Assembly: GCA_022606425.2 (NCBI GenBank)
Contig: JAHDVF020000240.1
Coordinates: 3,247,501-3,311,500 of the forward strand
DNA: 64,000 bases
Direction of reading: 5' to 3'
DNA from: Lepidostoma basale
Lineage: Eukaryota > Arthropoda > Insecta > Trichoptera > Lepidostomatidae
Shown here: one piece after another, positions 4,258-63,371 of the stretch
Layout of the letters: the number at the start of each line of letters is the position of its first letter
Numbering within the stretch: the first letter of the stretch is position 1
Translations under genes and position numbers: made by a program
Notes under the pieces: generated by a model
The model's database searches: none
Seen by the model: only the letters and a program-made list of their open reading frames with translations
What the model was told of the DNA's origin: nothing

Positions 4258-4327
4258 TTCTAAAAACTGAGAATTAAACACATTTAAAACGTTGTATAAA
4301 ACCACTTTATTTTGAGTCAGGAGCGCC

Positions 4328-4359
4328 AACCGGTTTCACTCTGTAACGAGCTTCTTCAG
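4328..4359 (-). ncRNA. Hammerhead-like ribozyme motif, family HH7
   Basis: Core CTGAAGA, extra A, stem II GCTC/GAGT with a GTTACA loop, GAA, self-complementary ACCGGT, then T. Stem I pairs GCC before the core with GGC after the cleavage position. Confidence 0.75.
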
Positions 4360-4393
4360 GGCTATACACAAACTGATGTACGAGTATATAGCC

Positions 4394-4428
4394 CTGACGA
4401 AACTCGTTACAGAGTGAAACCAGCTGGC
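4394..4428 (+). ncRNA. Hammerhead-like motif, family HH7, partner copy
   Basis: Core CTGACGA, extra A, stem II ACTC/GAGT, GAA, then ACCAGCTGG in place of ACCGGT. Opposed to the motif at 4328-4359; the changed stem III is still self-complementary in its centre. Confidence 0.65.
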
Positions 4429-4526
4429 GCTCCCGACTGAAATAATGTGGTTTTATACAACGTTTTAAAAGTGTTAAATTCTAATTTTAAATATATCAAA
4501 CCATCAAGTAATAGCTTCTTTCCTTA

Positions 4527-4820
4527 TTCTTCTTCTTCTTCTTTTAATAGATCTGACGATCAGTGACACAGAAATCATATCTCATCGGATGATGAGATCC
4601 AGCTGTCCCTCCATCTCTTAGGCGGTCTTCCAGGTGGGCGGTGTCCGGAAGGGATTTCATAAGCGGCTGTATATGCGAGTCTGTCACCATCCATTCGGGC
4701 TACATGGTCCCTCCAGTATCTTCTTCTGGATCTACTCCACTGAACGATATCCTCTATTTCGCAGGTTTTTCTTATGTCTGCGTTGCGGACACGATCTCGG
4801 AGGGTTTTTCCAGTAATTAA
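4527..4820 (-). mobile_element. LINE-C variant, 5'-truncated copy with GAA tail
   Basis: Minus strand reads ITGKTLRDRVRNADIRKTCE, IEDIVQWSRSRRRYWRDHVA and PSGHRPPGRPPKRWRDSW in one frame. The tail is a GAA repeat. The frame is open through this fragment but lacks the catalytic RT part. Confidence 0.87.
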
Positions 4821-4869
4821 CTTCTTTCCAAAGAATATAATTATTGTTTCTTGGAAAATAATGTCCATT

Positions 4870-5040
4870 AAAAAACTACTAATAGGAATATAAACGTATG
4901 TTTTCTAGAATTTTAATAATATTTTATGGGAAGGACATGTTTTTCCTTGCAAAAGCATTATTAAATAAGTAATAATGCAAGACGAAACATGTTATCGCCT
5001 TAAAATATATTTTTTTTATAAAACAGAGTTTTCAAGAGTT
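4870..5040. mobile_element. HH2 collapsed inverted pair
   Basis: Left minus-strand core remnant at 4934-4964 (ACATGT, then TTTTCC instead of TTTCG) faces a plus-strand remnant around 4971-4993 (GACGAAACATGT). Stem II is lost on the right side. HH2 body sequence TTTTCTAGAA flanks it. Confidence 0.6.
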
Positions 5041-5169
5041 CTCAAGAGTCTTCCTGTGAAGTCGATTCCCAGCTGTTTCATCTATTTGTTTGTCTGTCCG
5101 GGGGTGATCTACGCATTAAGTTTAACAAAAGTTGAAATTGAAGGTTTTTGTGGAGTCTAAAAATAGTTA

Positions 5170-5325
5170 ACTTATTAACTAACTAACCAAAACGCCGTTT
5201 CCCCGAAAGTTTAGACAGAGAGGATAAATCGCCACCAACACCGCGCTAACCTGAAATATTTTTCTTCTGAGTTTCCTCTTTTTTCATATATCGTAACATG
5301 CACGCTCGTCAATTTTTCCAACTTA
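5170..5325 (-). mobile_element. LINE-A3 3' end, decayed
   Basis: Begins with the AACTAACTAACC tail complement and the GGCGTTTTGG end signature, then degraded LINE-A3 sequence with AACATGCACGCTCGTC. Heavily mutated. Confidence 0.65.
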
Positions 5326-6091
5326 TAAATGTAGCCGCGTTTTAATAATTAATTTATTTGGTAACAAATAGTTTTTCTTCTTTCATATAATGCATTCTAC
5401 ATCACTTTAAATTAAGGATTCAAAATTAAATAATTAATTGAAAACGTATTTTCACAATACTTTCTTGAACTTTTCACAAATATTTTGTAACAATTTTGTG
5501 AGGCCAAGGCGTATTCTTTATATGATCTTCAAAATAATGAGATATTTTCTGATCATCTTGGTGATTGGATATTAAATTCTGTAACCATTGATTTAAATCC
5601 TTGCAAAATAAATTTAGTGAGAATTCAATGTTTTCAAAAACTTATTAAAATATATTTATGAATGTGTCTGGATCCGCGGTTGGGAGCATCTGTTCATCTG
5701 TACCATCGACACATGCCAAAGTGTACCGGAAAACATTAGCATAGTCACTCCTCCTCCGACAATTCGCGTTTGTCAGAACATCGCCACTTTCGAGTGAGAA
5801 AAAACACAAGTGTTTACGTTGGGCGTATGTGCTAATATATCGATATGAGATTTTCACACGAAGCAACTATGTTTTCTGCGGCTCCCATATGCCGGATGGA
5901 AGTGATCAAGAGCTAAGTTTTATGTAGTTCAGAACAGACCTCGTTTGAAATACCCCCCTTCAACAAATGCATTAAAAAATATAATGTATTATGGTGAATA
6001 ATTTGCTTTAATTAGAACGTTTTTATGGCAATCGCCAATATGTTTAGATATTAAGATTGTGTTCACGCATATAATGGGCGAATTCTAAAAC
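5326..6091. other. No gene recognised
   Basis: The stretch 5650-5900 is less AT-rich and has a 73-codon minus-strand ORF with no motif I know. The rest is AT-rich and featureless. Confidence 0.45.
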
Positions 6092-6358
6092 ATTAACTAA
6101 CTAACTAACCATTTCGTAGTAGGCAGAAATAATGTACAGTCATACTGTTCTTTCCTGATATACTTCTCTCAATTACTAAACATTCATGCATCGTGTCATG
6201 CACGCAAATCGATTTCTCATATTCCTCATCTAACCGACATTCAATATTTGATTTGATTATGCAATATTTTTCTCTATTTCTAGTTCCGTTTACATAGTTA
6301 AAACATACTTTATTTACATTTTTCATTTATTCTTTCCATGTGTTCAAACTTAATGATC
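6092..6358 (-). mobile_element. LINE-A1, 3' part of a copy split by HH8
   Basis: Starts with the AACTAACTAACC tail complement and carries decayed NDVNGTRNRE and TRCMNVEE regions. The LINE continues at 6522 after the HH8 insertion. Confidence 0.8.
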
Positions 6359-6521
6359 CATTTATTTAATTTTAGATAAACTTAAGGCGTTAACACTGTG
6401 AAACTCCATAATACGTATTTTTATGAATTAAAACACTGTTTTTTCCACTTTTGAGTTTATTTTTCTCGACATGTTTCGAAGGCTTACACATTCATCATCG
6501 GGAGAACGATAAAAACTCCTG
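6359..6521 (-). mobile_element. HH8 element inserted in LINE-A
   Basis: About 160 nt lie between two LINE-A halves and so define an HH8 insertion. Read on the minus strand, it starts about 20 nt before the hammerhead core and ends after the shared 3' signature CACAGTGTTAACGCCTTAA. TGATCC on one side and TGATTC on the other may be a short target duplication. Confidence 0.75.
6468..6501 (-). ncRNA. Hammerhead-like ribozyme motif, family HH8
   Basis: Core CCGATGA, extra T, stem II GAATG/CCTTC with one mismatch, GAA, palindromic ACATGT, then C. Stem I pairs TTCTC with GAGAA (5 bp). The second core base is C rather than the usual T. Confidence 0.7.
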
Positions 6522-6597
6522 ATTCTTTTATTATTTTGTTTGTAACACTTTCATTTGCACTGCATTTTTTTCTTTCATGCACTTCTTATATTTCACG
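6522..6597 (-). mobile_element. LINE-A1, 5' part of the split copy
   Basis: Decayed minus-strand SECGANDG and NKIMKGS regions, continuing the LINE-A at 6092-6358. Confidence 0.65.
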
Positions 6598-6790
6598 TAA
6601 ATTACCTTAATTACTGTTCCTTTAACTCGTTTATATAAACAACAACGCGTTTGATTTTCGCTACAATTGATTTAGATATGTCAAAAACATGTAATTCACA
6701 CAAATTGTAATAAAACTTCTAGAAAACAGACGTCCATTCGTGCTATTTTTTATATGGAGTTTAACATCATTGATCAAGTAAAAATTATAT
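6598..6790 (+). mobile_element. HH2 element with promoter-like 5' region
   Basis: Order: conserved ACGTAAATTACC leader, TATA-like TTTATATAAAC at about 6630-6640, CGCGTTTGATTTTCGCTAC, a decayed ribozyme region at 6667-6691 that keeps ACATGT but lost GAAA, then the HH2 body with CTTCTAGAAAACAGACG and the 3' end TTTAACATCATTG. The same leader precedes other HH2 copies at 42452 and 54710. Confidence 0.72.
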
Positions 6791-6997
6791 AATAACAAAC
6801 ATCATTCTATATTACCAGGAACGCATGAGATGTGATTCAACCTTTGAAATACGAGATACTCTCTAGAGTCAAGAGTATTTGTCTTCTGAACGTACTTTCA
6901 CTAATATAATATTACAATGGGAGTGATTTTTTTCTAGGACATTAACAAATACATTTAGAAAGTAAGAAATTAGATGTGATCATCACGCGTTATATAT

Positions 6998-7532
6998 TCT
7001 TCTTCTTCTTCTTCTGTTATATTTAGGACTGTGTCCTGTTATTTCTCGGAGCCTATTCCTGGGATGCAGATATCCAACTGTCTCGCAATCTTTTAGGTGG
7101 TCTTCCTGCAGGTCAATTTCGTGTTGGTTCTTTATTTGCGGCTATATTTATCACTCTTTCAGAACATGCTCTTTCCACATGATCTCTTCAGCATCGTCTT
7201 ATCAGTCTTCCCCATCGCACGACATCTTCTACATTGCAGATATTTCTTATTACAGAATTTCTTATTCTGTCTCGGAGTGTCGTTCCCGCAACGAATCGGA
7301 GAGTCTTCATTTTTGTAGTTTTTAGGAGACTTTTTATTCTGATGGTGTCAGCTCTCATTTCTATTCCATATGTCATTATAAAACGTACGTATGTCTTGTA
7401 GATTCAAATTTTGCTCTCCTTAAGCATGTTTTTATTTTTCCAAACAGCATTCGTCAAGCAGCCAGCCACAACGGCGGCCCTGTTTGTTAGTTCACTTACT
7501 TCTCCGTAGAGGTCACTGCTGCTTAGCCTTAT
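6998..7532 (-). mobile_element. LINE-C variant with GAA tail
   Basis: Minus-strand frames read SSSDLYGEVSELTNRAAVVA, WKNKNMLKESKI, TYGIEMRADTIRIKSLLK and TKMKTLRFVAGTTLRDRIRN, then VIRNICNVEDVVRWGR. This is the end of a reverse transcriptase and its C-terminal tail, broken by stops. It is the longest LINE-C-type copy of this subtype here. Confidence 0.86.
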
Positions 7533-7879: not shown

Positions 7880-8010
7880 AATAAAACGATGTTTTTTTAC
7901 TACTTCCACTTTTGTCTTTATTTCGACAGCGACCGGTTTCGCTAGGCTCGCTGGCATCGACAGACTGGTGACACTATTGTAAACTTGGTCCTTTATATAT
8001 TATGCATACA
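7880..8010 (-). mobile_element. HH4 element
   Basis: Minus-strand HH4: ribozyme core followed by the body GTCGAAATAAAGACAAAAG and AAACATCGTTTTATTTA. The 5' side extends through TCACCAGT into sequence shared with the copy at 49040. Confidence 0.78.
7931..7963 (-). ncRNA. Hammerhead-like ribozyme motif, family HH4
   Basis: Core CTGTCGA (T where the hammerhead consensus has A), extra T, stem II GCCAG/CTAGC with one mismatch, GAA, ACCGGT, then C. Stem I pairs CAGT with GCTG (one wobble). The core change occurs in every HH4 copy, so it is a family trait. Confidence 0.65.
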
Positions 8011-8325: not shown

Positions 8326-8329
8326 ATTT

Positions 8330-8994: not shown

Positions 8995-9260
8995 AAATAA
9001 AAGAAAGGCCACCTTTGTGGCAGAGTGGCAAGAGCTATGACCGCCACACCGAGGGTCCCGGGTTCGAAGCCTGGCGATGGCAGTGTGATTCTCAATATGT
9101 ATCACTGAAGAAGGACTGGTTGTCCGAAACATGTCTATGTACTTTTAATATTTTAATATAAGTGTCGTATATACAAAGTATATTTATTTATTTTGTATTT
9201 TTTCCATGAAATTTTATTTTTTTAATAAAAATGTTGTATATAAAGTATTAAAAAAAAATA
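8995..9260 (+). mobile_element. SINE1 tRNA head fused to an HH1 hammerhead element
   Basis: The first 95 nt are the SINE1 head with an A-box-like GTGGCAGAGTGGCAAGAG and a B-box-like GGGTTCGAAGCC. At GCAGTGTGATT the SINE1 match stops and HH1 sequence begins, with its ribozyme core and the body GTATATACAAAGTATA. The order is Pol III-type promoter then ribozyme. Confidence 0.78.
9104..9135 (+). ncRNA. Hammerhead-like ribozyme motif, family HH1
   Basis: Core CTGAAGA, extra A, perfect stem II GGAC/GTCC with a TGGTT loop, GAA, ACATGT, then C. Stem I is weak because the downstream strand differs from other HH1 copies. Confidence 0.72.
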
Positions 9261-9404: not shown

Positions 9405-9580
9405 TCTGTCAAAACTGATCATATTTGTAAACAATTTTATAATATTTTAAATATGTATCTTTATAATATCACGGAGGAATACCGGTTGTCCGAAACATGT
9501 TTGAATTATTTTTTTAAGTTAGTGTTGTATATACAAAGTATATAAAAAGAAAAAGACAAATTAATAATTTGATGTTGAAA
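9405..9580 (+). mobile_element. HH1 element
   Basis: Contains the HH1 5' region (TTTGTAAACAATTTTATAAT), a ribozyme core at 9472-9501 with first box CGGAGGA and ACATGT, and the body TGTTGTATATACAAAGTATA. Stem II is CCGGTTGTCC-like and imperfect. Confidence 0.72.
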
Positions 9581-12584: not shown

Positions 12585-12700
12585 AATTCACTTCGGAAAT
12601 TGAAAATAACTTTGTTTGTAACCCACAAAATATGAAGATGTAGTTATCCTACGAAACATGTCGTGTTTTTTTTAACATTTCCCTTACGGTGCTAAAATAA
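12585..12700 (+). mobile_element. HH9 element
   Basis: Shares GAAAATAACTTTGTTT and the ribozyme block with the HH9 copies at 60488 and 56040. Confidence 0.7.
12632..12662 (+). ncRNA. Hammerhead-like ribozyme motif, family HH9
   Basis: Core ATGAAGA (A in place of the first C), extra T, perfect stem II GTAG/CTAC with a TTATC loop, GAA, ACATGT, then C. Its stem II differs at paired positions from the HH9 copy at 60594 (GGAGG/CCTCC) yet stays paired. Confidence 0.65.
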
Positions 12701-13349: not shown

Positions 13350-13470
13350 TATTTAATATTATTTGTACCTATACAACACTCACTTTTAAAACAAATAAAA
13401 ATTAAATATCAAACATGTTTCGGACTACCCAGCCCTTCCTCAGTGATATAATATAGATATTTAAAATATA
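13350..13470 (-). mobile_element. HH1 element, minus strand
   Basis: HH1 body and ribozyme on the minus strand, about 35 nt from a plus-strand HH4 core. Two different HHR families therefore sit head to head here. Confidence 0.75.
13412..13443 (-). ncRNA. Hammerhead-like ribozyme motif, family HH1
   Basis: Core CTGAGGA, extra A, stem II GGGCT/AGTCC (one G-T wobble), GAA, ACATGT, then T. Stem I pairs TATATCA-side bases with TGATATTT over 6 bp. Confidence 0.8.
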
Positions 13471-13562
13471 TAATAGCTGTCGATGCCAGCGAGCTTGGCG
13501 AAACCGGTCGCTGTCGAAATAAAGCCAAAAGTGGAAGTAGTTAAAAAACATCGTTTTATTTA
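13470..13562 (+). mobile_element. HH4 element, 5'-truncated
   Basis: Begins about 7 nt before the ribozyme core, then GTCGAAATAAAGCCAAAAG and AAACATCGTTTTATTTAA. Confidence 0.75.
13477..13509 (+). ncRNA. Hammerhead-like motif, family HH4
   Basis: Core CTGTCGA, extra T, stem II GCCAG/TTGGC (wobble allowed), GAA, ACCGGT, then C. The upstream stem I strand is lost by truncation. Confidence 0.6.
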
Positions 13563-13564
13563 AT

Positions 13565-13800
13565 TACTATTATAAAATTGTTTACAAATATGGTCAGTTT
13601 TGACAGATTTATAATATTTTAAATACTTTTATAATATTTTAAATATCTATTTAATATCACTGAGGAAGGGCTGGGTAGTCCGAAACATGTTTGATATTTG
13701 GTTTAAATTTGTTTAAAAATTGATTGTACAATACAAAGCAAATAAAAAAATATATAAATACAAATACCACATAATTTGAAAAATACATGTTTAAAAAGTG
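13565..13800 (+). mobile_element. HH1 element, complete-looking
   Basis: 5' region AAATTGTTTACAAATATGG, an internal repeat of TTTATAATATTTTAAATA, the ribozyme, then the body ATTGTACAATACAAAGCA. One of the best HH1 copies. Confidence 0.78.
13660..13691 (+). ncRNA. Hammerhead-like ribozyme motif, family HH1, best copy
   Basis: Core CTGAGGA, extra A, stem II GGGCT/AGTCC around GGGT, GAA, self-complementary ACATGT, then T. Stem I is a perfect 7 bp AATATCA/TGATATT directly next to the core and the predicted cleavage position. Only the extra base after the CTGANGA box departs from a textbook hammerhead. Confidence 0.85.
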
Positions 13801-16094: not shown

Positions 16095-16156
16095 ATAAGT
16101 TATTTAAATTGAATACACATTAATTTGTTAAAACTACTTTTATTTTTGAGTTCGTC

Positions 16157-16188
16157 GACCGGTTTCGCTCACAACCGAGCTTCCTCAG
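16157..16188 (-). ncRNA. Hammerhead-like ribozyme motif, family HH6
   Basis: Core CTGAGGA, extra A, perfect stem II GCTC/GAGC with a GGTTGT loop, GAA, ACCGGT, then C. Stem I pairs GTC with GAC. Confidence 0.78.
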
Positions 16189-16413
16189 GACTGATTAATA
16201 ACTAAACTTAAAATTAAATACAATATCATGGCTTAGGACTAGAGGAAGATGGGACTAGAGTGTTAGAGTGAGAATACTGTGGGTGATAAGGAATTGACAG
16301 AAGAGAGTGGGGAGGATTAGGCAGTGGTATAGGGTCTAACACTCTAGTCCCATCTTCCTCTAGTCCTAAGCCATGATATTGTATTTAATTTTAAGTTTAG
16401 TTATTAATCAGTC

Positions 16414-16445
16414 TTGAGGAAGCTCGGTTGTGAGCGAAACCGGTC
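16414..16445 (+). ncRNA. Hammerhead-like ribozyme motif, family HH6, partner
   Basis: Same as the motif at 16157-16188 but with TTGAGGA as first box. Stem II, GAA, ACCGGT and stem I are unchanged. Confidence 0.72.
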
Positions 16446-16559
16446 GACGAACTCAAAAATAAAAGTGGTTTTAACAAATTAATGTGTATTCAATTTAAAT
16501 ATTGATAACTCCACAAAGTGATGGCTTCATACCAAAAAAAAAAAAAAAAAAGTTATTTA

Positions 16560-18129: not shown

Positions 18130-18270
18130 TGTTTATTTAGTTAAATTCCACTTATGTGTTGTATGGCTTTGATCGATTTCGGCAGCTCGCTGACTTCCAG
18201 AAGATGACAGTGATTTGCCGAAACCGGTCGAAACCATAAACATAAGTTGAATCAAACTATATATAATAAA
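18130..18270. mobile_element. HH5 inverted pair with overlapping core boxes
   Basis: Minus-strand motif at 18171-18200 and plus-strand motif at 18198-18229 meet in the palindrome CTTCCAGAAG, so the first core boxes of both ribozymes overlap. Arms CACTTATGTGTT and ACATAAGT lie outside. Confidence 0.7.
18198..18229 (+). ncRNA. Hammerhead-like motif, family HH5
   Basis: Core CAGAAGA (A at the second place), extra T, stem II GACAG/TTGCC imperfect, GAA, ACCGGT, then C. Confidence 0.55.
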
Positions 18271-18999: not shown

Positions 19000-19164
19000 T
19001 TTATTGTTTCTTGAATAATGATGTAAAACTTCATATTAAATAATTAATATGAATGAGAACGTCAGTTTTCTAGAAGTTTAATCACATTTTATGGGAATGA
19101 CATGTTGCGCACTTCTAAGGCATTAACAAATGTGACAAAACTTCAACTCGTTGCAGTTTAAACA
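19000..19164 (-). mobile_element. HH2 element, second adjacent copy
   Basis: Same organisation and orientation as the copy at 18700, about 100 nt away. Core at 19099-19129 has TTAATGCC, GCGCAACATGTC; the GAAAC block reads GCAAC, so it is inactive by mutation. Confidence 0.7.
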
Positions 19165-22270: not shown

Positions 22271-22337
22271 GGTAAAATCATAAACTGATTAATTGTACAA
22301 CTCTGTTTTTATGTATCACAATTTTATTTATATTTAT

Positions 22338-22373
22338 ATTCGTGTTTCGTCAACCCTACGTTGACATCATCAG
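22338..22373 (-). ncRNA. Hammerhead-like motif, family HH3, damaged
   Basis: Core CTGATGA, extra T, stem II GTCAAC/GTTGAC with one mismatch, GAA, but stem III is cut to ACACG in place of ACAGCTGT. Confidence 0.6.
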
Positions 22374-22394
22374 GTGTAACAATAATTATAACAC

Positions 22395-22430
22395 CTGACG
22401 ATGTCAACGTAGGCTGACGAAACAGCTGTC
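22395..22430 (+). ncRNA. Hammerhead-like ribozyme motif, family HH3
   Basis: Core CTGACGA, extra T, stem II GTCAAC/GCTGAC (one mismatch), GAA, 8-nt self-complementary ACAGCTGT, then C. Stem I is weak (CAC against GCG). Confidence 0.7.
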
Positions 22431-22474
22431 GCGAAAAATAAAAATGAAAACAAAATAGTAATACATAAAAACAG

Positions 22475-22835
22475 ATGTGGTCATATAGAAGACTATTAGG
22501 AATTTCCTGGAGAGACCACATCGCGAATGAGGAAGTTCTTCAAGGAATCGAAGGAGGAAGGCACCTGCTCAGGACCTTGTCCAAAAGGCGTGCAAGATGG
22601 ATCGGCTATGTAATACGTCAAGAAGGTCATGTATTGCATGCCATAATGGAGGGTATGACCGAGGGGACAAACTCTAGGGGACGCCCACGCCGGAGTACCT
22701 AGAGGACCTGTTGGTGGACGTGCGCTGTTTGTCTTATGCAGATTTCAAAAGAGCCGCACAAGACAGGGAAGAATGGAATAGAATAATAGAAGAAATTGCT
22801 GCAAACCAATCCCAGAATTGAAACTTTCTAACTAA
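22475..22835 (+). mobile_element. LINE-D inserted in HH3
   Basis: MWSYRRLLGISWRDHIANEE, LQGIEGGRHLLRTLSKRRAR, WIGYVIRQEGHVLHAIMEGM, then a frameshift and DFKRAAQDREEWNRIIEE to stop. AAAACAGA occurs on both sides (about 22467-22474 and 22836-22844), a likely target duplication. Confidence 0.9.
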
Positions 22836-22959: not shown

Positions 22960-23050
22960 GTTCTACTTGGATTTAATTTATATAATAAATTATATAAATA
23001 GTGACTTCAGACATGTTTCGGTAACAAGTTACCTTTTTCAATATATACAA
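22960..23050 (-). mobile_element. HH10 element
   Basis: Single copy of this family in the window. Flanks are very AT-rich (AATTTATATAATAAATTATA). Confidence 0.6.
23010..23041 (-). ncRNA. Hammerhead-like motif, family HH10
   Basis: First box TTGAAAA (two departures), extra A, perfect 6-bp stem II GGTAAC/GTTACC, GAA, ACATGT, then C. Stem I is not evident. Confidence 0.6.
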
Positions 23051-24699: not shown

Positions 24700-25040
24700 A
24701 TTTATTAGATTTACTTTTATTATTCTTTTTTATACACTTTGTATACACAACACTGATATTGAAAAAATAAAATTATATGGACATGTTTCGGACAAACAGA
24801 TGAAATTATATAGACATGTTTCTGACAGATATATTATAACACCTGTCAGATCATGTAAACAACAACAATTTTATAATATTTATATAAATATGTATCTTTA
24901 CTGAAGAAGGACTGTTTGTCCGAAACATGTCCATATAATTTTATATTTTTAATATCAGTGTTGTATATACAAAGTGTGTAAAAAAGAAAAATATAAATAA
25001 ACCATCATAACAACACATATGGCGAACATAGAAGAATTTT
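24700..25040. mobile_element. HH1 inverted pair
   Basis: Left minus-strand HH1 (TTTGTATACACAACACTG, ACATGTTTCGGACAAACAG, core truncated) faces a plus-strand HH1 whose body ends at TATGGCGAACATAGAAGAA. A second ACATGTTTCTGACAG lies between them, suggesting a small duplication. Confidence 0.75.
24901..24931 (+). ncRNA. Hammerhead-like ribozyme motif, family HH1
   Basis: Core CTGAAGA, extra A, perfect stem II GGAC/GTCC with a TGTTT loop, GAA, ACATGT, then C. Confidence 0.75.
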
Positions 25041-32879: not shown

Positions 32880-33170
32880 ATTAATTATATAGTCCATTCA
32901 TTTGGACAAAACACTATGATACCGTAACATTTTCAATTGTTAAATTAAATAACTTTGTTTTATGTATCACAATTGTATTTTATTCTATGAGACAGCTGTT
33001 TCGTCAACCTATGTTGACATCATAATATCATCATCCATCATCAGGTTTTACAATATTATTGTAACACCTAATGATGTCAACATAGGTTGACGAAACAGTT
33101 GTCGCGTAAAATAAAATACAATTGTGATACATAAAACAAAGTTATTTCATTTAATAGTTTTAAATTAATT
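32880..33170. mobile_element. HH3 inverted pair
   Basis: Arms TTTATGTATCACAATTGTAT and its complement; left minus core 32992-33045 carries a 20-nt insertion rich in ATC, right plus core is better. End signature CCATTCATTTGGAC at 32890 is degraded. Confidence 0.78.
33069..33104 (+). ncRNA. Hammerhead-like ribozyme motif, family HH3
   Basis: Box CTAATGA (one change), extra T, perfect 6-bp stem II GTCAAC/GTTGAC with an ATAG loop, GAA, ACAGTTGT, then C. Confidence 0.68.
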
Positions 33171-40477: not shown

Positions 40478-40660
40478 CGTCCATTGTTTTGGCCAAAACA
40501 TTATGATACTACATAATAAACTATTTATTACAAAAAAACTTTTATATGTTGATATATTATTGAAACACCTGATGATGTCAACATAGGTTAACGAAACAGC
40601 TGTCGCGAAAAATAAAAATACGGTTGTGATGCATTAAACAAAGTATTTTTTTTAATTTGA
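40478..40660 (+). mobile_element. HH3 element
   Basis: Left end signature CCATTGTTTTGGCCAAAAC on the opposite strand and a plus-strand ribozyme with body AAAATAAAAATACGGTTGTG. A shortened inverted pair with the left core deleted. Confidence 0.75.
40569..40604 (+). ncRNA. Hammerhead-like ribozyme motif, family HH3, best copy
   Basis: Perfect first box CTGATGA, extra T, stem II GTCAAC/GTTAAC (one mismatch) with an ATAG loop, GAA, self-complementary ACAGCTGT, then C. Stem I short and imperfect. Confidence 0.75.
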
Positions 40661-40850: not shown

Positions 40851-41055
40851 GCATCGTCAAAACAGACCTTATTTGTAAACAATTTTATAATGTTTTAAAT
40901 ATTTATATAATATGACTGATGAAGGGCTGGTTAGTCCGAAACATTTTTGATATTTAATTTAATTTTTTTAAATAAATGTGAGTGTTGTATACAAAGCATA
41001 AAAAAAGAAACATTAAATATCTACAACATAAAGTTATGGCGACATAGAATAAATT
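40851..41055 (+). mobile_element. HH1 element
   Basis: CAAAACAGACCTTATTTGTA leader, AACAATTTTATAATG, ribozyme, GTGTTGTATACAAAGCATA and the TATGGCGACATAGAA end. Confidence 0.78.
40916..40947 (+). ncRNA. Hammerhead-like ribozyme motif, family HH1
   Basis: First box CTGATGA, extra A, stem II GGGCT/AGTCC, GAA, ACATTT (palindrome broken by one base), T. Stem I AATATGA/TGATATT with one mismatch. Confidence 0.75.
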
Positions 41056-41189: not shown

Positions 41190-41290
41190 ATTGATACGAA
41201 TGAAAATATCTATTTTCTAGAAGTAATGTTATATTTAATGCGAATGACGTGTTTCGGCCTTGCTAGGCAATATCAAATGTGTCAAATGTC
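41190..41290 (-). mobile_element. HH2 element
   Basis: Core 41246-41276: TTGATAT, stem II TGCCTAG/AAGGCC-like, GAA, palindromic-like ACACGT, then C. HH2 body downstream; promoter part missing. Confidence 0.65.
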
Positions 41291-41804: not shown

Positions 41805-42000
41805 TTAATATGGATGAAAACGTCAGTCTTTTAGGAGTTTTATTAAATTTTATATGAAATGACTTGTTTCGCACTTCTAAAGCATTATCAAATAGCTTTG
41901 ATAATGCCTTGCATACATACATTTGATAATGTCTTAAAAGGGCGAAACATGCCATTCCATATCAAATTTATTAAAACTCCTAGAAGAATTTTGATTTTAT
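41805..42000. mobile_element. HH2 inverted pair
   Basis: Minus core 41861-41891 (ACAAGT in stem III) and plus core 41923-41952 face each other; a third partial TTTGATAATGCCTT lies between. Arms share AGGAGTTTTATTAAATTT and its complement. Confidence 0.75.
41923..41952 (+). ncRNA. Hammerhead-like motif, family HH2
   Basis: First box TTGATAA (two departures), extra T, stem II GTCTT/AGGGC imperfect, GAA, ACATGC, then C. Confidence 0.5.
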
Positions 42001-46664: not shown

Positions 46665-46945
46665 AAATGTAATTATATTTACGATTTTTTTTATGAATTA
46701 AAACACTGTTTTTATCACTTTTGAGTTAATTTTTCTCTATGTTTCAAAGGCTTTTACACCTTCGTAATCGGGATAACGTATAAATATAAGTATAAGTATA
46801 TGAGTTCATAGAGTTTATATCGTTCTCTCGATGATGGAGGTGCAAGCATTCGAAATATGTCGAGATAAATTAACTCAAATTTGATAAAAAAAAAAACAGT
46901 GTTTTAATTAATAAAAAGTCGTCATTATGGAATTACAAAGTGTAA
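46665..46945. mobile_element. HH8 inverted pair
   Basis: Arms ATGAATTAAAACACTGTTTT and complement; left minus core 46735-46771 degraded, right plus core good. A loop of TATAAGTATAAGTATA lies between. Confidence 0.75.
46828..46861 (+). ncRNA. Hammerhead-like motif, family HH8
   Basis: First box TCGATGA, extra T, stem II GGAGG/CATTC imperfect, GAA, ATATGT, then C. Stem I CTC/GAG extended by T-A (4 bp). Confidence 0.58.
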
Positions 46946-48734: not shown

Positions 48735-48850
48735 ATTGATACTTTTGACTTTTGATAATGCATTACCAAGGCGAAACATGTTATTTATAATATGTTATGA
48801 AATATAAAATAGCCGTTTACATTCCTATTAAGTAAATCATTTATTTTTTA
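48735..48850 (+). mobile_element. HH2 element, 5' part
   Basis: Core and first part of the body only. Confidence 0.6.
48752..48782 (+). ncRNA. Hammerhead-like motif, family HH2
   Basis: First box TTGATAA, extra T, stem II GCATT/AAGGC imperfect, GAA, ACATGT, T. Confidence 0.5.
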
Positions 48851-49039: not shown

Positions 49040-49220
49040 TACATAAATGAGTATGTTTGTAACAGTGTCACCAGTGTGTCGATGCCAGCGAGCCTGGCGA
49101 AACCGCTCGCTGTCGAAATAAAGACATAAGTGAAAGTTGTTAAAAAACGTTGTTTTAATTTATTATTATTTGAAATGAATTTCTATCCAGAGATTTCAGT
49201 TGTGTTTTTCCCCAAACCAA
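49040..49220 (+). mobile_element. HH4 element
   Basis: GTGTCACCAGTGTGTCGATG leader, ribozyme, GTCGAAATAAAGACATAAG, then the 3' end TTTCTATCCAGAGATTTCAG. Confidence 0.78.
49076..49108 (+). ncRNA. Hammerhead-like ribozyme motif, family HH4
   Basis: First box GTGTCGA, extra T, perfect 5-bp stem II GCCAG/CTGGC, GAA, ACCGCT, then C. Stem I CAGT/GCTG (one wobble). Confidence 0.62.
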
Positions 49221-49424: not shown

Positions 49425-49462
49425 ATAATATTTATACTAACACCACTTTATTTGTTAACACC

Positions 49463-49494
49463 AACCGGTTTCGCTCCCGTCGGAGCTACGTCAG
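49463..49494 (-). ncRNA. Hammerhead-like ribozyme motif, family HH7
   Basis: First box CTGACGT (last base changed), extra A, stem II GCTCC/GGAGC, GAA, ACCGGT, T. Stem I CACC/GGTG, 4 bp. Confidence 0.75.
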
Positions 49495-49528
49495 GGTGAG
49501 AGAATAAACATCAGTATATTTTCTCACC

Positions 49529-49560
49529 CTGACGAAGCTTCGGCGGGAGCGAAACCGGTT
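49529..49560 (+). ncRNA. Hammerhead-like ribozyme motif, family HH7, partner
   Basis: First box CTGACGA, extra A, stem II GCTTC/GGAGC imperfect, GAA, ACCGGT, T. Stem I is weakened by one base (AGTG after the cleavage position). Confidence 0.7.
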
Positions 49561-49639
49561 AGTGTTAACAAATAAAGTGGTGTTAATACAAATTACTAAA
49601 AGTGTATTATTATTACATTTAACAAAGTTATACAATTTT

Positions 49640-50299: not shown

Positions 50300-50510
50300 T
50301 TTTTCATTGATTGTTTCCTGAACAATGATGTAAAACTCCATATTAAATAATTAATACGAATTATTAAAACGTCAGTTTTCTAGAAGTTTTTATATATTTT
50401 ATGGGAATGACATTTGATAATGCCTTAGAAGGGCGAAACATGTCATTCCCACAAAATATAATAAAACTTCTAGAAAACTGACGCTTTCATTTGTAATCAT
50501 AATTTAATTT
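50300..50510. mobile_element. HH2 foldback, one core
   Basis: Arms of about 45 nt (GTCAGTTTTCTAGAAGTTTT ... ATGGGAATGAC) pair with the complement; only the plus-strand ribozyme remains at the tip. Ends with TTGTTTCCTGAACAATGATG on the left. Confidence 0.8.
50414..50444 (+). ncRNA. Hammerhead-like motif, family HH2, consensus-like copy
   Basis: First box TTGATAA, extra T, stem II GCCTT/AGGGC, GAA, ACATGT, then C. TGGGAAT/ATTCCCA gives a 7-bp outer stem I across a 5-nt bulge, continued by the foldback arms. Confidence 0.6.
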
Positions 50511-51614: not shown

Positions 51615-51815
51615 ATTACCGATATAAATATTATAAAATTGTTTACATTTATGTAAACAATTTTATAATATTTTAAATATCTTTATAATATCACTGATGA
51701 AGGACCGGGTTCTTAGAAACAAGTCTGATATTTAATTATTATTTTTTAAGTTAATGTTGTGTATACAAAGTATAATATATAAAAAAGAAAAAGACAAATG
51801 AAGAAATTTTCTTAA
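51615..51815. mobile_element. HH1 element with inverted 5' part
   Basis: Begins with the perfect palindrome of AAAATTGTTTACAT and its complement (51630-51670), i.e. two inverted HH1 leaders fused, then one plus-strand ribozyme and the HH1 body. Confidence 0.78.
51694..51725 (+). ncRNA. Hammerhead-like ribozyme motif, family HH1
   Basis: Perfect first box CTGATGA, extra A, stem II GGACC/TCTTA degraded, GAA, ACAAGT, C. Stem I AATATCA/TGATATT is a perfect 7 bp, kept although stem II decayed. Confidence 0.7.
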
Positions 51816-53394: not shown

Positions 53395-53552
53395 TATTCA
53401 TTGAATAATAATGTAAAATTGCATTTTTAATAATGAATACAATCGTCTGTTTTCTAGAAGTTTTATGTAATTTATGGGGAGAATGACATATTTCGCTTTT
53501 CCAAGTCATTTATTGATGCCTTAGCAAGGCGAAACAAGTCATTAAAAATACA
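53395..53552. mobile_element. HH2 inverted pair
   Basis: Minus core from 53485 (ATATGTC, stem II lost) and plus core 53513-53540 (TTGATGCC, AGCAAGGC, GAA, ACAAGT, C). Confidence 0.65.
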
Positions 53553-54704: not shown

Positions 54705-54763
54705 TACAAAAAATTTAATTTTTTTTACTATTACGGATCTGTATGATATTTAATATGAATAAT

Positions 54764-54794
54764 GCCATGTTTCGCATTGCCAATGCATTATCAA
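54764..54794 (-). ncRNA. Hammerhead-like motif, family HH2
   Basis: First box TTGATAA, extra T, stem II GCATTGG/CAATGC pairs well (GCATTG with CAATGC), GAA, ACATGG, C. Better stem II than most HH2 copies. Confidence 0.58.
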
Positions 54795-54820
54795 ATGTAG
54801 CGAGATTCAAATGCGTCGCT

Positions 54821-56039: not shown

Positions 56040-56182
56040 ATTTCTTAACTTATTGAATGCTAAGGCATTAACACTGTGGAATTCCACTGTAATATACTTA
56101 TGAAATTGAAAATAACTTTGTTTAATTCACAAAATATTATGTGGATTAAACAAAGTTATTTTCAATTTCCTAAGTACCTATA
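56040..56182. mobile_element. HH9 inverted pair without ribozyme
   Basis: GAAATTGAAAATAACTTTGT and its complement face each other across an 18-nt centre; the 3' signature GCATTAACACTGTGGAATTC is present on the left. Both cores are deleted. Confidence 0.68.
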
Positions 56183-56189: not shown

Positions 56190-56320
56190 ATTTATTTAGT
56201 ATTGTATATTTAATGTGCTTCCACTTTTGTTTAAAGTCGACCGGTTTCGGCAGCTTGCTGCCATCTTCTGGTCTACGGACTTTAAACACAAGTGGAAGCA
56301 CACTAAATACTCGTATATAA
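56190..56320. mobile_element. HH5 element
   Basis: Arms GTGTGCTTCCACTTGTGTTT (right, complement) and GTGCTTCCACTTTTGTTTA (left) flank one minus-strand ribozyme: a foldback with a single core. Confidence 0.78.
56239..56270 (-). ncRNA. Hammerhead-like ribozyme motif, family HH5, best copy
   Basis: First box CAGAAGA, extra T, perfect 6-bp stem II GGCAGC/GCTGCC with an AA loop, GAA, ACCGGT, C. A 10-bp outer stem I, GTTTAAAGTC/GACTTTAAAC, lies across a 7-nt internal loop. Confidence 0.72.
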
Positions 56321-57347: not shown

Positions 57348-57545
57348 TGACGACCTTCGTGGCAGAGTGGTTACGAGCTCTGACTTCCATGCCGAAGGTC
57401 CTGGGTTCGATTCCCGGCGATGGCAGTGTGATTGTCACACTGTCTTTGTCTGGTGTAAAATTCACGTGACAGTAAAATGGCGATAGATTGGCTACCTATC
57501 ACATGTCACGAGAATCAATATAATAGCTAAAAAATAAAAATTGTA
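57348..57545 (+). mobile_element. SINE1 with intact tRNA-like head
   Basis: GACGACCTTCGTGGCAGAGT, A-box-like TGGCAGAGTGGTTACGAG, B box GGGTTCGATTCCCGG, then GCAGTGTGATTGTCACAC and ACATGTCACGAGAATCAA. The internal Pol III promoter looks intact. It is not a tRNA gene: the anticodon arm does not close and SINE sequence follows without a terminator. Confidence 0.87.
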
Positions 57546-59092: not shown

Positions 59093-59094
59093 AC

Positions 59095-59240: not shown

Positions 59241-59244
59241 TTGT

Positions 59245-60224: not shown

Positions 60225-60487
60225 ATAATGAAAACGCGTATGTTTTATAGGTTTCACATAGATTTTTATTTGTATATTAAAATATATAGATACTTGTTAC
60301 AAATTTCGCCTTGCTAGGGCATACTCTAACTCTATGATACATCTCATTTCCAAAACTGGAGTTTGAGAATGCCCTCGCCAGGTGAAACAACTTTGTAACA
60401 AGTATTTTTATATATAAATGAATAAAATATTATATATAAATAAAAAAACCTCTTTAAAACCGATAAAACGTTTTCATTATAATTTAT
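60225..60487. mobile_element. HH2-related inverted pair
   Basis: Minus remnant 60297-60325 (AAATTTCGCCTTGCTAGGGC) and plus core 60363-60393 (TTGAGAA, extra T, GCCCTCGCCAGGT, GAA, ACAACT). Outer arms AAAACGTTTTCATTATAAT and AATTATAATGAAAACGCG. Confidence 0.68.
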
Positions 60488-60640
60488 TATAAACTTATTG
60501 AACGCTAAGGCATTACCACTGTGGAATTAAATAGTAATATACTTAGGATATTGAAAATAACTTTGTTTAATCAACGAAATATTAAAAAAACACGACATGT
60601 TTCGGAGGATACCTCCATCTTCAGGTGTAAAAATATAATA
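60488..60640 (-). mobile_element. HH9 element
   Basis: 3' signature (GGCATTACCACTGTGGAATT complement), body, ribozyme. Confidence 0.8.
60594..60624 (-). ncRNA. Hammerhead-like ribozyme motif, family HH9, best copy
   Basis: First box CTGAAGA, extra T, perfect 5-bp stem II GGAGG/CCTCC with a TAT loop, GAA, ACATGT, C. Stem I ACAC/GTGT, 4 bp. Every core position fits apart from the extra base. Confidence 0.85.
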
Positions 60641-60819
60641 AAAACTAAACAATGAAAGACTAATATAAATACGCATTTAAAATTCGATACAATAATTCAA
60701 ATTTAAAAATTAGCTTGGGTTATTTGTCATAAGTACTAATAATATTTTTTTATAAGTAAGAACTAATAAATAATATTAAATAAGAATAATACACGATGAT
60801 AATATAAAAAATATAAAAC
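60641..60819. other. No gene recognised
   Basis: AT-rich, nothing seen. Confidence 0.4.
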
Positions 60820-60962
60820 TAACTAACCAACTAACCAACACGCCGTCTCTCCGAAAGGGTAGGCAGAAAGAATGGACTGTCACACTTTCACTGATGCGGC
60901 ACTCCATCCTTCTCTTTTCGCCCCGCGGGAGACGCGGTGTGATGGGTTGCGAACCTCATATT
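60820..60962 (-). mobile_element. SINE2, 5'-truncated
   Basis: Tail complement AACTAACCAACTAACC, LINE-A-like 3' end, GATGCGGCACTCCATCC, CCGCGGGAGACGCGG, GGGTTGCGAACCTCA. Confidence 0.83.
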
Positions 60963-61036
60963 TAAATCCATTAAAATCATATATTTTAATTCAGTAATAA
61001 TAAAATCAAAAGTACAATTTTTTCACACGTTACATA

Positions 61037-61143
61037 TAGGGTGTTTTTTAAGAGGTTTGGTTTTTTAAACTGGCAACATTGTTTCTACAGTGTGTATACA
61101 ATGTTGTCAGTTTAAAAACCAAACCTCTAAAAAAACACCTATA
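61037..61143. mobile_element. MITE, mariner/Tc1-like ends
   Basis: Terminal inverted repeats of about 45 nt starting AGGTGTTTTTTTAGAGGTTT, bounded by TATA/TA. Only about 10 nt separate the arms. TA target and short length fit a Tc1/mariner-derived MITE. Confidence 0.75.
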
Positions 61144-61149
61144 TATAAC

Positions 61150-61565
61150 TAAAAAAACTAACTAACTGCCATCACGCCGTCTCCCCGAAAGGGTAGGCAG
61201 AAAGAATGGACTGTCACACTTTTACTGATGCGGCACTCCATCCTTCTCTTTTCGCCCCGCGGGAGACGCAGTGTGAAGGGTTGCGAACCTCATCGCCACC
61301 AATAGGCATCTCCCGCGCACACTTCGATCGTCCAAAACCCACAAAATAAATCTAAAACAAATAATATAAAATACAATGATATAAAATAAAATAACAAAAT
61401 AAAAATAATTTAACACAAAATGTTCTTTTTAGATGGTGCACATATTGTCTATTTAATTTATGTTCCACGTATCCACCGTTTTTTTTAATTAAGCACATAA
61501 TGTAATAACACATAATGTTTTTTTTCGATGTTTCACATGTTGACATGGATGATCCGGACTTTTGT
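61150..61565 (-). mobile_element. SINE2, full length with insertion
   Basis: Minus strand from AAAGTCCGGATCATCCATG to the LINE-A-like end and TTAG tail. A 70-nt segment with TGTGTTATTACATTATGTG is extra compared with 55049-55380. Confidence 0.86.
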
Positions 61566-61603
61566 GTTATATAACGTGTGAAAAAACGGTACTTTTGATT
61601 TTT

Positions 61604-61984
61604 ATATATAATATGTTATAGTTCTTGGCCTATAAGATTGGTATCGCCTTATTTGGTTTCCCCCATCGATATACAAGTAGCTGCTAAGGTCTGGAAGCAA
61701 AGCGTATTTTATATGTTGTGTCCTCATTCTAACCTGTCTGATGAAAATTGCTTGATATTTAATTTGTAAAATGAATTTAAAAAAAAAAACGTTTCATAAA
61801 ATCAAATGTATCCTTTTATGTTCTACGAAACCTTTTTAAAACCGCATAAGCCGAAGAAAAAATGCGTGTTCAAAAAAATATTTATCAAGTTCACACAAAT
61901 TGAAATCATTTGATGTTTTTATAACATCCCATGTTGTGTTGGTAAAAAATATAGGAGTGTATAAAACATATAAAAACAGATAAT
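61604..61984. other. No gene recognised
   Basis: Nothing supported. Confidence 0.45.
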
Positions 61985-62310
61985 AAATATTTTAATTGTA
62001 TCTCAATAGAGACGAAGACGCAAACCGGAAACTGAACATGGATGATCAAGGTGTTTACAGGACTTATGACCTGTCATTGGTTGGGTTAAGCGCACGCTTT
62101 ATGTAATTACAACATTCCCCATTCCACCTTTGTTATTTTGTGATCATGCATGACAAATTTTTGGAAGATGTATATATACTTCAAAATCCATATTTATCTT
62201 CACGTGTCAGTTTCAGTCAGCCATCTATGAAGATTTGGTTGCACTTGTGAATTTTTTCAAGAATTAACCTATACAACCGACCCACTAACGCAATCTATGG
62301 AGAATGATTT
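61985..62310 (+). repeat. R1 dispersed repeat, longest copy
   Basis: TGTATCTCAATAGAGACGAA, GGTGTTTACAGGACTTATG, CCTGTCATTGGTTGGG, ACAACATTCCCCATTCCACC, TGACAAATTTTTGGAAGATG and GCCATCTATGAAG. Extends beyond the other copies on both sides. Confidence 0.75.
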
Positions 62311-62466
62311 TCGGCATTTAGCAAACTACCTTATTAACACAATGTGAAGGCTGTTGACCAACATATTGTTAGAAGCCGCTAGGAGTATTATTCCATTCTA
62401 TATGCCAAAGAATGCTATGCATAATAAATAATATGCCTAATAAATATGTGAAAAAACCTTTCAAAC

Positions 62467-62705
62467 TAAATAACTAACTAACCATTAGCCGTCTCTCCGG
62501 AGGAATAGGCAGAGAGAATGAACCGCCATACCGTTCTGTCCTGACATACCTCTCTTGCTTCCTTCACATTAATTTATACATCGTAACACGCACGTTCGTC
62601 GATTTTTCCGACATAGAATGTGGTCGCCTTTCGGTATTTGATTAATTTGGTCTTGTCATGCTTTCCTTGGTGTTCCGCGACTTCTCGTTCCACTCACACT
62701 GATAT
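62467..62705 (-). mobile_element. LINE-A3 with TTAG tail
   Basis: Minus strand: ISVSGTRSRGTPRKA, QINQIPKGDHILCRKNRRTC and decayed SREVCQDRTVWRFILSA. Confidence 0.83.
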
Positions 62706-63070
62706 TTATTAAATTTAATAATATGCGAAACCTTAACCATAAAATCAATGAATAAATATATCACACAACAATTTCTAACTAATATCAGCTTAGAAATACT
62801 AATATGATATAATTTTAATTTTATTCATTTGATTACGTATTATATTTGACATCACATACATGTATCAATAAATAGGAAACGAAAGTAAATACGTTAACCA
62901 AAAAAATGATTGACTAATAATCACGAATGATAACGTCTGTTTTCTAGAAGATAAACTTTTAAATATAAAATAAAAAAACATATTGTTTTAAACGACGGTA
63001 TGGTTATTATAATTGATGCCTTCTAGTTTTGCTTGGACCCAAGATTAATAATATCAGATATTATACTGAT

Positions 63071-63102
63071 CTGATGAAGCTTAGGTACAAGCGAAACTAG
63101 TT
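63071..63102 (+). ncRNA. Hammerhead-like ribozyme motif, family HH11
   Basis: First box CTGATGA, extra A, stem II GCTT/AAGC, GAA, self-complementary ACTAGT, T. Outer arms GACGGTATGGTTATTATAAT pair with their complement; an inverted degraded partner lies at 63022-63045. Confidence 0.78.
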
Positions 63103-63166
63103 GGCATCAATTATAATAACCATACCGTCGTTAAATACAAAGTGTTTTATTAAAGTTTATGGGAAC

Positions 63167-63197
63167 GACATGTTTCGCCTTTCTATGGCACCGTCAA
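63167..63197 (-). ncRNA. Hammerhead-like motif, family HH2
   Basis: First box TTGACGG, extra T, stem II GCCAT/AAGGC imperfect, GAA, ACATGT, C. Confidence 0.52.
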
Positions 63198-63371
63198 ATG
63201 TGAAATCGAAACATGTCATTTCCATAGAACTTCAAGAAAACAGACGTTTTAATTTTTATTTCAAACAGAAGTTTTACATCATTGTTCAAAGAAACAATAA
63301 ATAAATTATAAACATTTCATATTGTTTTTTTATAAAGTGACAATAGTGAATAAACGTTTTTTTACTTGTGT

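What the first reader, a model, noticed from the sequence alone, without database searches (positions are those of the whole stretch)
4258..63305. At least 11 families of hammerhead-like ribozymes with self-complementary stem III scattered through the window
Seen: over 40 sites follow one plan (CTGANGA-like box, one base, stem II, GAA, palindromic ACATGT/ACCGGT/ACAGCTGT/ACTAGT, then C or T). Between families both sides of stem II change together (GGGCT/AGTCC, GGAGG/CCTCC, GTCAAC/GTTGAC, GCTC/GAGC, GGCAGC/GCTGCC, GCTT/AAGC) and stem III stays self-complementary. Several show stem I (7 bp at 13660, 4 bp at 60594 and 49463). Known: small hammerheads with minimal stem III occur in Penelope-like retroelements and retrozymes and cleave as dimers. 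Inference: these are non-autonomous ribozyme elements, a major repeat class of this genome.
Basis: partly seen in the sequence, partly recalled or inferred. Interest (0 to 1): 0.92.

Follow-up and report, generated by a model that had tools for sequence, protein, structure and literature searches.

The report
Penelope retrotransposon ends with self-cutting RNA
This stretch of an animal genome is littered with short repeats, some of them clearly the ends of Penelope-type jumping genes, that carry a tiny RNA motif looking like a self-cutting hammerhead ribozyme built to work in pairs; the kind is known, but the number and variety in one genome are striking.

Summary
The window has 39 hammerhead-like sites at E<0.05, grouped by eye into 13 families whose stems I and II change in a compensatory way while stem III stays self-complementary. 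In 52 of 52 sites tested, one unpaired base stands between A9 and stem II. The own genome (769 Mb) holds 14,316 exact cores; the reversed-pattern control gives 1. The best window family (F4, 16107-16549) is 98-99% identical to the 3' end (pseudo-LTR, pLTR) of a Penelope-like retrotransposon (PLE) at C92, keeps the last codons of its ORF, and lies between 10-bp target-site duplications. Another PLE (L309, RT plus GIY-YIG) has a hammerhead about 105 nt after its stop and begins MANIEE, the peptide at which several F3-type copies end. Head-to-head pairs, known for PLEs, are the commonest layout. The tie to PLE coding sequence is shown for F4 and F3-type copies and inferred for the other window families. 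Cleavage, most likely as RNA dimers, is inferred. Verdict: abundant new members of a known kind (small dimeric PLE hammerheads).

The parts
16107..16549 (.). F4 element: head-to-head pair of PLE 3' ends, 443 bp, between 10-bp target-site duplications AAGTTATTTA (16097-16106, 16550-16559); the right end runs into a run of A
   Evidence: 98-99% identical to PLE pLTRs of L308
16146..16196 (-). hammerhead F4, left copy
   Evidence: E=1.2e-10
16406..16456 (+). hammerhead F4, right copy
   Evidence: E=5.3e-10
16253..16336 (-). C-terminal codons of the PLE ORF (28 aa, 89% identical to the L308 PLE)
   Evidence: tblastn, E=7.9e-11
16335..16376 (+). last codons and stop of the PLE ORF in the right arm (SNTLVPSSSSPKP*), about 30 nt before the hammerhead
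   Evidence: same C-terminus in L308
9257..9337 (-). PLE endonuclease-region remnant (27 aa, 63%) beside the hammerhead at 9464
   Evidence: E=3e-4 and 7e-4
13376..13727 (.). F2 head-to-head pair (arms 94 nt, 90% complementary), with F11 sequence between the arms
13401..13451 (-). hammerhead F2
   Evidence: E=7.8e-10
13652..13702 (+). hammerhead F2
   Evidence: E=3.7e-9
13469..13520 (+). hammerhead F11
   Evidence: E=6.7e-5
4264..4488 (.). F5 head-to-head pair
4317..4367 (-). hammerhead F5
   Evidence: E=9.7e-9
4386..4436 (+). hammerhead F5
   Evidence: E=7.1e-5
49430..49593 (.). F6 head-to-head pair, 4 nt between arms
49452..49502 (-). hammerhead F6
   Evidence: E=2.6e-10
49521..49571 (+). 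hammerhead F6
   Evidence: E=2.3e-9
62971..63152 (.). F7 head-to-head pair (arms 84% complementary; no left hammerhead hit)
63063..63113 (+). hammerhead F7
   Evidence: E=8.9e-10
24710..25001 (.). F3 head-to-head pair (left copy truncated in its hammerhead); 88 nt after stem III the right copy reaches ATGGCGAACATAGAAGAA (MANIEE), a PLE ORF start
24893..24942 (+). hammerhead F3
   Evidence: E=1.2e-7
9097..9146 (+). hammerhead F3
   Evidence: E=8.8e-9
9464..9512 (+). hammerhead F2/F3
   Evidence: E=0.0061
22302..22475 (.). F8 head-to-head pair
22309..22381 (-). hammerhead F8
   Evidence: E=7.6e-5
22387..22441 (+). hammerhead F8
   Evidence: E=2.5e-7
32929..33165 (.). F8 head-to-head pair
32980..33030 (-). 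hammerhead F8
   Evidence: E=0.031
33060..33114 (+). hammerhead F8
   Evidence: E=1.9e-6
40561..40615 (+). hammerhead F8
   Evidence: E=2e-7
60583..60632 (-). hammerhead F9
   Evidence: E=2.3e-11
12624..12673 (+). hammerhead F9
   Evidence: E=6.1e-5
56228..56278 (-). hammerhead F10
   Evidence: E=5.9e-10
18190..18240 (+). hammerhead F10
   Evidence: E=3.8e-6
7920..7971 (-). hammerhead F11
   Evidence: E=4.1e-8
49068..49119 (+). hammerhead F11
   Evidence: E=0.0011
6457..6509 (-). hammerhead F12
   Evidence: E=1.9e-9
46820..46872 (+). hammerhead F12
   Evidence: E=9.8e-5
22999..23049 (-). hammerhead F13
   Evidence: E=6.4e-9
40908..40958 (+). hammerhead F2
   Evidence: E=4.5e-6
51686..51736 (+). 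hammerhead F2
   Evidence: E=1.9e-4
50406..50455 (+). hammerhead F1
   Evidence: E=1.2e-6
63156..63205 (-). hammerhead F1
   Evidence: E=2.1e-5
41850..41899 (-). hammerhead F1 (head-to-head with 41915)
   Evidence: E=4.7e-5
41915..41964 (+). hammerhead F1
   Evidence: E=0.0022
   Evidence: E=5.8e-5
48744..48793 (+). hammerhead F1
   Evidence: E=6.8e-5
54753..54802 (-). hammerhead F1
   Evidence: E=1.9e-4
53502..53551 (+). hammerhead F1
   Evidence: E=3.3e-4
41235..41284 (-). hammerhead F1
   Evidence: E=0.0071
19088..19137 (-). hammerhead F1, decayed
   Evidence: E=0.017

Best explanation
The motifs are small type I hammerhead ribozymes in the pseudo-LTRs (pLTRs) of several families of Penelope-like retrotransposons. 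Shown: the fold and its covariation; for F4 and L309/L291 the order ORF stop, about 30 nt (F4) or 105 nt (L309, L291), hammerhead, and for F4, F3-type and L291 copies a further 76-110 nt to an ORF start; frequent head-to-head layout. For F1, F2 and F5-F13 the PLE link rests on shared anatomy and is inferred. Also inferred: stem III alone is too short to hold one ribozyme, so two RNAs, or two pLTRs of one transcript, pair through the palindrome into a double hammerhead and each cuts after base 17, separating the pLTR from the downstream unit. Copies examined run through the cut site, and several stop a few codons into an ORF. So the reverse-transcribed RNA was uncut or re-ligated there, and reverse transcription probably started just inside the ORF and ran 5'-ward. 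It often stopped early, leaving solo pLTRs, and a second, inverted copy was often joined 5' end to 5' end.
For: Covariation and stem III. Genome scale with controls: 14,316 exact cores against 1 reversed; 1,611 of one stem-II type against 0. F4: hammerheads at C92 794652-794682(-) and 796993-797023(+) flank PLE ORF matches 794828-795487(-) and 796353-796847(+); window F4 is 98-99% identical to that locus and carries its last codons. L309: 818-aa ORF from MANIEE with RVT_1 (37.3 bits, cut-off 29.6) and GIY-YIG (23.0, cut-off 22.6), stop at 3271, hammerhead hit at 3376-3428. L291: GIY-YIG ORF on both arms, each followed by a hammerhead. F3-type: PLE C-terminal codons on the same strand some 165-180 nt before the hammerhead in L281 (E=1.5e-13) and L295 (1.4e-7); also in L290 before its second hammerhead (3.6e-18), in L273 on the other arm (1.1e-7), weakly in L277 (0.01). 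Relatives of the endonuclease carry PF26215 (9 of 11), PF01541 (2) and PF00078 (1). ORF-start-like letters 45-135 nt after stem III in 19 of 87 cores, 15 of them MANIE or [MS]ASY, against 3 of 87 on the 5' side; the pattern was chosen after seeing some of these. Head-to-head: 18 of 20 close pairs in GCTC-type loci, 21 of 24 PLE coding pairs. Unconstrained cofolding gives the double-hammerhead geometry for F5 and F6.
Against: No cleavage data. Many window copies have base changes in the core or only 0-3 bp of stem I, so few may be active. Head-to-head is not general: 8 of 18 close pairs in the general loci (6 tandem, 4 tail-to-tail) and 9 of 19 in the window (6 tandem, 4 tail-to-tail). Clear target-site duplications were found for 1 of 10 window pairs at the element ends (another 10-nt AT repeat, F8a, is not at the arm ends) and for 1 of 14 genome elements at 12 nt; 6 of the 14 have only 8-9 nt AT-rich candidates and 7 none. 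F1, F2 and F5-F13 are not tied to PLE coding sequence. L309 has no hammerhead hit in the 814 nt before its start; a truncated PLE in L307 is followed only by a hit of E=0.14. Of 11 cofolded families only F5 and F6 gave the double hammerhead as minimum; F2, F3 and F9 kept stem II and paired the strands through stem III without it, six folded otherwise. A published PLE did not need cleavage for insertion in vitro, and no reads ended at its cut site (PMC11167929, passages).
Confidence: 0.88

Rival explanations
1. Metazoan retrozymes: non-autonomous tandem repeats with canonical type I hammerheads, spread through small circular RNAs.
For: Small elements, thousands of copies; 7 of 38 close pairs are tandem, three of them in one array of about 104-nt units (L274).
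Against: Head-to-head pairs outnumber tandem ones; stem III is minimal; F3-type and F4 copies lie next to PLE coding ends.
Confidence: 0.06
2. MITE-like DNA transposons: the inverted arms are terminal inverted repeats and the hammerhead likeness is incidental.
For: Arms of 49-167 nt up to 99% complementary.
Against: Stems I and II covary within one arm, which inverted repeats do not explain; the F4 arms end unequally (right end about 40 nt longer); PLE codons inside F4; single copies are common.
Confidence: 0.03
3. Chance or codon-driven matches in AT-rich DNA.
For: Weak sites are at or near chance level (at score 14-15; at E above about 1).
Against: Shuffles, reversed-pattern control 1 against 14,316, only 2 matches of a related pattern in 257 Gb of prokaryote contigs.
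Confidence: 0.01
4. Decayed ribozymes: the fold is real but inherited from old PLEs and no longer cuts anywhere in this genome.
For: Many window copies are mutated; published PLE insertion in vitro did not need cleavage (PMC11167929).
Against: Consensus core letters in thousands of copies; 22 PLE matches 100% and 11 more 99% identical over the whole 217-aa query (which is one of them), and 7 of 150 with open frames of 742-873 aa, suggest recent activity.
Confidence: 0.15

Closest known systems
Small hammerhead variants of Penelope-like retrotransposons that cleave as dimers (Lunse, Weinberg, Breaker 2017; Cervera and de la Pena 2014)
   Same: Type I order, diminished stem III, PLE pLTR location, double-hammerhead cleavage (as told by reviews PMC7761336 and PMC6466107, passages; the two papers themselves are not held).
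   Different: 13 families in 64 kb of one genome; one unpaired base between A9 and stem II in 52 of 52 sites tested. I could not check whether those papers already describe that base.
Head-to-head inverted pLTRs of Penelope in Adineta vaga (PMC3846280, passages)
   Different: Here many copies are reduced to the pLTR pair or less, and carry hammerheads.
Poseidon PAc of Anolis (PMC11167929, passages)
   Same: Hammerhead near the ORF start; reverse transcription starts inside the template, in the first part of the ORF; AT-rich targets.
   Different: PAc's ORF begins at stem II of its hammerhead; here the ORF start lies about 76-110 nt after stem III.
Palindromic stem III hammerheads of Aedes and other repeats (PMC3088659, passages)
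   Same: Repeat-borne type I hammerheads with palindromic stem/loop III, dimer proposed.
   Different: That search rejected hits with a mispair next to the core at N10.1-N11.1; the extra base here breaks direct A9-stem II adjacency.
Metazoan retrozymes (PMC7229834, abstract and passages)
   Same: Small type I hammerhead elements in animals.
   Different: Tandem repeats with canonical hammerheads and circular RNAs; here more often head-to-head, and tied to PLE ends for F4 and F3-type copies.

Membership tests
Hammerhead ribozyme, type I | Core C3 U4 G5 A6 N7 G8 A9 / G12 A13 A14 / A15.1-U16.1 / H17 | tested here: met
   Core letters in 14,316 genome sites; window: 13 strict sites; base 17 C or T in 16 window sites. 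Many other window copies depart from the core
Hammerhead ribozyme, type I | Three stems with compensatory change, stem I open | tested here: met
[quoted passage not shown]
   One extra base in 52 of 52 sites; 0 sites with none or two
Hammerhead ribozyme, type I | Self-cleavage after base 17 | not testable with these tools
   needs in vitro transcription
Small dimeric PLE hammerheads | Minimal self-complementary stem III | tested here: met
   47 of 52, 15 of 16 in the window; 13 of 13 family representatives, which came from a list that favoured it
Small dimeric PLE hammerheads | Lies in the pLTR of a PLE | tested here: met
   F4, F3-type and the L291/L309 type; not shown for F1, F2, F5-F13
Small dimeric PLE hammerheads | Cleaves as dimer | not testable with these tools
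   cofolding only
Penelope-like element | ORF with reverse transcriptase and C-terminal GIY-YIG | tested here: met
   L309 ORF, elsewhere in the genome; the window has only C-terminal remnants
Penelope-like element | Inverted, often head-to-head pLTRs | tested here: met
   18 of 20, 21 of 24 coding pairs; but 8 of 18 and 9 of 19
Penelope-like element | pLTR reaches into the first codons of the ORF | tested here: met
   F4, F3-type, GCTC-type and L291 copies (15 of 87 cores); not found for the other families
Metazoan retrozyme | Tandem repeats bounded by canonical hammerheads | tested here: not met
   7 of 38 close pairs tandem; stem III not canonical
DNA transposon / MITE | Equal terminal inverted repeats at both ends | tested here: not met
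   tested on F4 only: its arms end unequally

The most novel reading that the evidence does not exclude
The palindromic stem III is not mainly for cutting but a dimer-linkage site: it joins two PLE RNAs, the two are carried together into one integration complex, and each is reverse transcribed from one strand of the broken target. That would make the hammerhead dimer the cause of the head-to-head insertions. It fits copies whose outer ends are both 3' ends and whose inner ends are unequal (L291, F4), the nearly always self-complementary stem III, and the report that a PLE protein cuts and extends both target strands (PMC11167929). Nothing here excludes self-primed snap-back copying, which earlier authors favour (PMC3846280). 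A second, separate novelty: hammerheads with one spare base after A9 may form a little-noticed subclass shared by animal PLEs and phages.
Probability: 0.1. Interest if true: 0.8.

Novelty: new member of a known kind. Interest (0 to 1): 0.48.

Why it matters
A review calls the role of PLE hammerheads unknown (PMC7761336). A genome with more than ten thousand core copies, many families and near-identical PLEs with long open frames would be a good place to test it: families that differ in stem III predict which RNAs can pair, and head-to-head insertions may record whether two RNAs were used. It also shows that a general RNA library can miss such motifs.

Tried and rejected
Rfam on the window: no hammerhead. 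Family patterns in viral contigs: 0. Prokaryote contigs: 2 matches, both in Streptomyces, taken as chance. The spare base as unique to this genome: rejected, because phage contigs show it too. Ten of the 99 window ORFs: no PLE domain in Pfam; remnants appeared only with the genome's own PLEs as query. Poly(A) as proof of a LINE-type tail for F4: not claimed, because the A run follows the letters ATGGCTTCATACC and may come from the ORF start or the target. A density of 11 sites in 40 kb of five pieces chosen by round coordinates would extrapolate to roughly 200,000 per genome, but 8 of the 11 are in one piece, in which I had already seen listed sites, so this is an order of magnitude at best. 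L307 held only a truncated PLE. RF00163 and PF01541 searches of the own genome did not complete. On re-checking I counted the second set of loci, which weakened the head-to-head claim, and corrected the stop-to-hammerhead distance of F4 to about 30 nt.

Full report
Observation. A strict pattern gives 13 sites in the window. A relaxed, scored scan gives 29 sites at score 17 or more, against 1,0,0,0,1,3 in six dinucleotide shuffles, and 16 at 19 or more against none. I grouped the sites by stem II sequence and flanks into 13 families, F1-F13, by eye. On the alignment of one good copy per family (A1) 88.5% of cells pair, the covariation score is 0.702 against 0.177 in shuffles (0 of 500 reach it), and sliding the partners by one to three columns drops it to 0.136 or less; one measure, the number of pairs with a change on both sides, is not unusual (199 of 500 shuffles reach it). 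Swapping 3' strands among families agrees. A covariance model (R1) finds 39 sites at E<0.05 in the window with filters off; 13 of them trained it.

Shape of the motif. Stem I, CTGANGA, one unpaired A or T, stem II of 4-6 bp, GAA, a self-complementary stem III (ACATGT, ACCGGT, ACTAGT, ACAGCTGT), C or T, stem I. Requiring a near-match of the box, 4 bp of stem II, GAAAC and GT, 52 distinct sites of the window and loci L272-L306 have exactly one base between A9 and stem II and none have 0 or 2; 47 of the 52 have a self-complementary middle of stem III. For the window alone: 16, none, none; 15 of 16. Rfam does not report them. Phage contigs also hold hammerhead-like motifs with a spare U at that place (at least 120 stretches, the scan stopped there; 80 loci looked at; by a crude test 29 of 81 motifs have 4 bp or more of stem I, against 67 of 89 canonical ones). 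Rfam at gathering missed 11 of 11 such phage loci given to it (8, 3) but also 5 of 7 canonical ones.

Genome scale. The window is C825:3247501-3311500 of an unnamed 769-Mb genome. The pattern CTGANGA-N12..16-CGAAACNNGTC has 14,316 exact matches there, its reversed form 1. One stem II type (GCTC) has 1,611, control 0. Thirty 3-kb loci from each search hold 74 and 83 model hits at E<0.05 (some loci overlap).

Surroundings. Arms of 49-167 nt in opposite orientation hold many of the sites. Among 20 hammerhead pairs under 150 nt apart in 28 loci of the GCTC type, 18 are head-to-head, 1 tandem, 1 tail-to-tail (65 of 74 hits, two overlapping loci dropped). In 27 loci of the general pattern it is 8, 6 and 4 of 18 (71 of 83 hits, three overlapping loci dropped), and in the window 9, 6 and 4 of 19 pairs under 300 nt. 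So head-to-head is the commonest layout, but not general. F4 (16107-16549) has a 10-bp target-site duplication; the other nine window pairs have none that is clear at their ends. Of 14 genome elements one has a 12-nt candidate, six have 8-9 nt, seven none.

What they belong to. Locus L291 holds two head-to-head hammerheads with a GIY-YIG endonuclease ORF on each arm. Eleven relatives in a database of 5.8 billion proteins carry PF26215 (9), GIY-YIG (2) or reverse transcriptase (1) domains; the one with an organism name is from the plant bug Lygus hesperus. In the own genome the ORF has 150 scored matches out of 9,581 candidates; 22 are 100% and 11 more 99% identical over all 217 aa (the query is one of them), and 7 of the 150 have open frames of 742-873 aa. 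Neighbouring matches under 5 kb apart: 21 head-to-head, 3 in the same direction, two of which are overlapping matches. L309 has an 818-aa ORF starting MANIEE with reverse transcriptase and GIY-YIG domains, and a hammerhead about 105 nt after its stop, but no hit in the 814 nt before its start. At C92 two PLE ORF ends are each followed, about 30 nt after the stop, by the F4 hammerhead. The window's F4 element is 98-99% identical to that locus and still encodes the ORF's last codons on both arms. PLE C-terminal codons also lie next to F3-type hammerheads, on the same strand, in L281 and L295, before a second hammerhead in L290, on the other arm in L273, and weakly in L277. After 19 of 87 cores, 45-135 nt on, there are ORF-start-like letters (15 read MANIE or [MS]ASY), against 3 of 87 on the other side; I chose the pattern after seeing some of them.

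How it most likely works. Transcripts of PLEs would carry the hammerhead in each pLTR. One copy can hardly hold stem III, two can; cofolding gives the double hammerhead for F5 and F6; F2, F3 and F9 keep stem II and pair through stem III without it, and six other families fold otherwise. Cleavage after base 17 would separate units. The copies examined cross that site, and several end inside an ORF start, so their RNA templates were uncut or rejoined, in line with internal initiation reported for another PLE (PMC11167929, passages). Head-to-head copies are known for PLEs and were explained by self-priming (PMC3846280, passages). All steps of this paragraph about RNA are inference.

Comparison and verdict. 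Minimal type I hammerheads in PLE pLTRs and dimeric cleavage are in print (reviews seen as passages; the primary papers of 2014 and 2017 were not held). Palindromic stem III in mosquito repeats was noted in 2011 (PMC3088659, passages). I file it as new members of a known kind, unusual in number and variety. The link to PLE coding sequence is shown for F4 and F3-type copies only. Cleavage was not tested.

Noticed in passing
L054, L056, L027, L082, L045 (viral contigs): Three to six hammerhead-like motifs (E<=10) stand a few hundred to some thousand bases apart on one strand of the same phage contig, some with long stem III hairpins; Rfam reported none in L054 and L056.
   Followed up: partly
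L274:2211-2569 (-): Tandem array of four F1-type hammerheads about 104 nt apart, satellite- or retrozyme-like.
   Followed up: partly
window 56095-56176: Near-perfect palindrome that looks like the F9 tail without its hammerhead, just downstream of the F10 hammerhead.
   Followed up: no
window 9008-9085: tRNA-like stretch (box A/B-like, by eye; not reported by ARAGORN) just before an F3 hammerhead; possibly a SINE head.
   Followed up: no
window 57353-57425: tRNA-Gly (TCC) gene by ARAGORN.
   Followed up: no
window 5171-62551 (17 places): Dispersed repeat family with ACTAACTAACCATCACGCCGTC, by eye linked to LINE-like ORF ends with an RGRPRKTW motif; in L291 and L248 a hammerhead element lies beside its ACTA tail.
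   Followed up: no
L164: Short phage stretch with 11 tRNA genes and a canonical hammerhead-like match among them.
   Followed up: no
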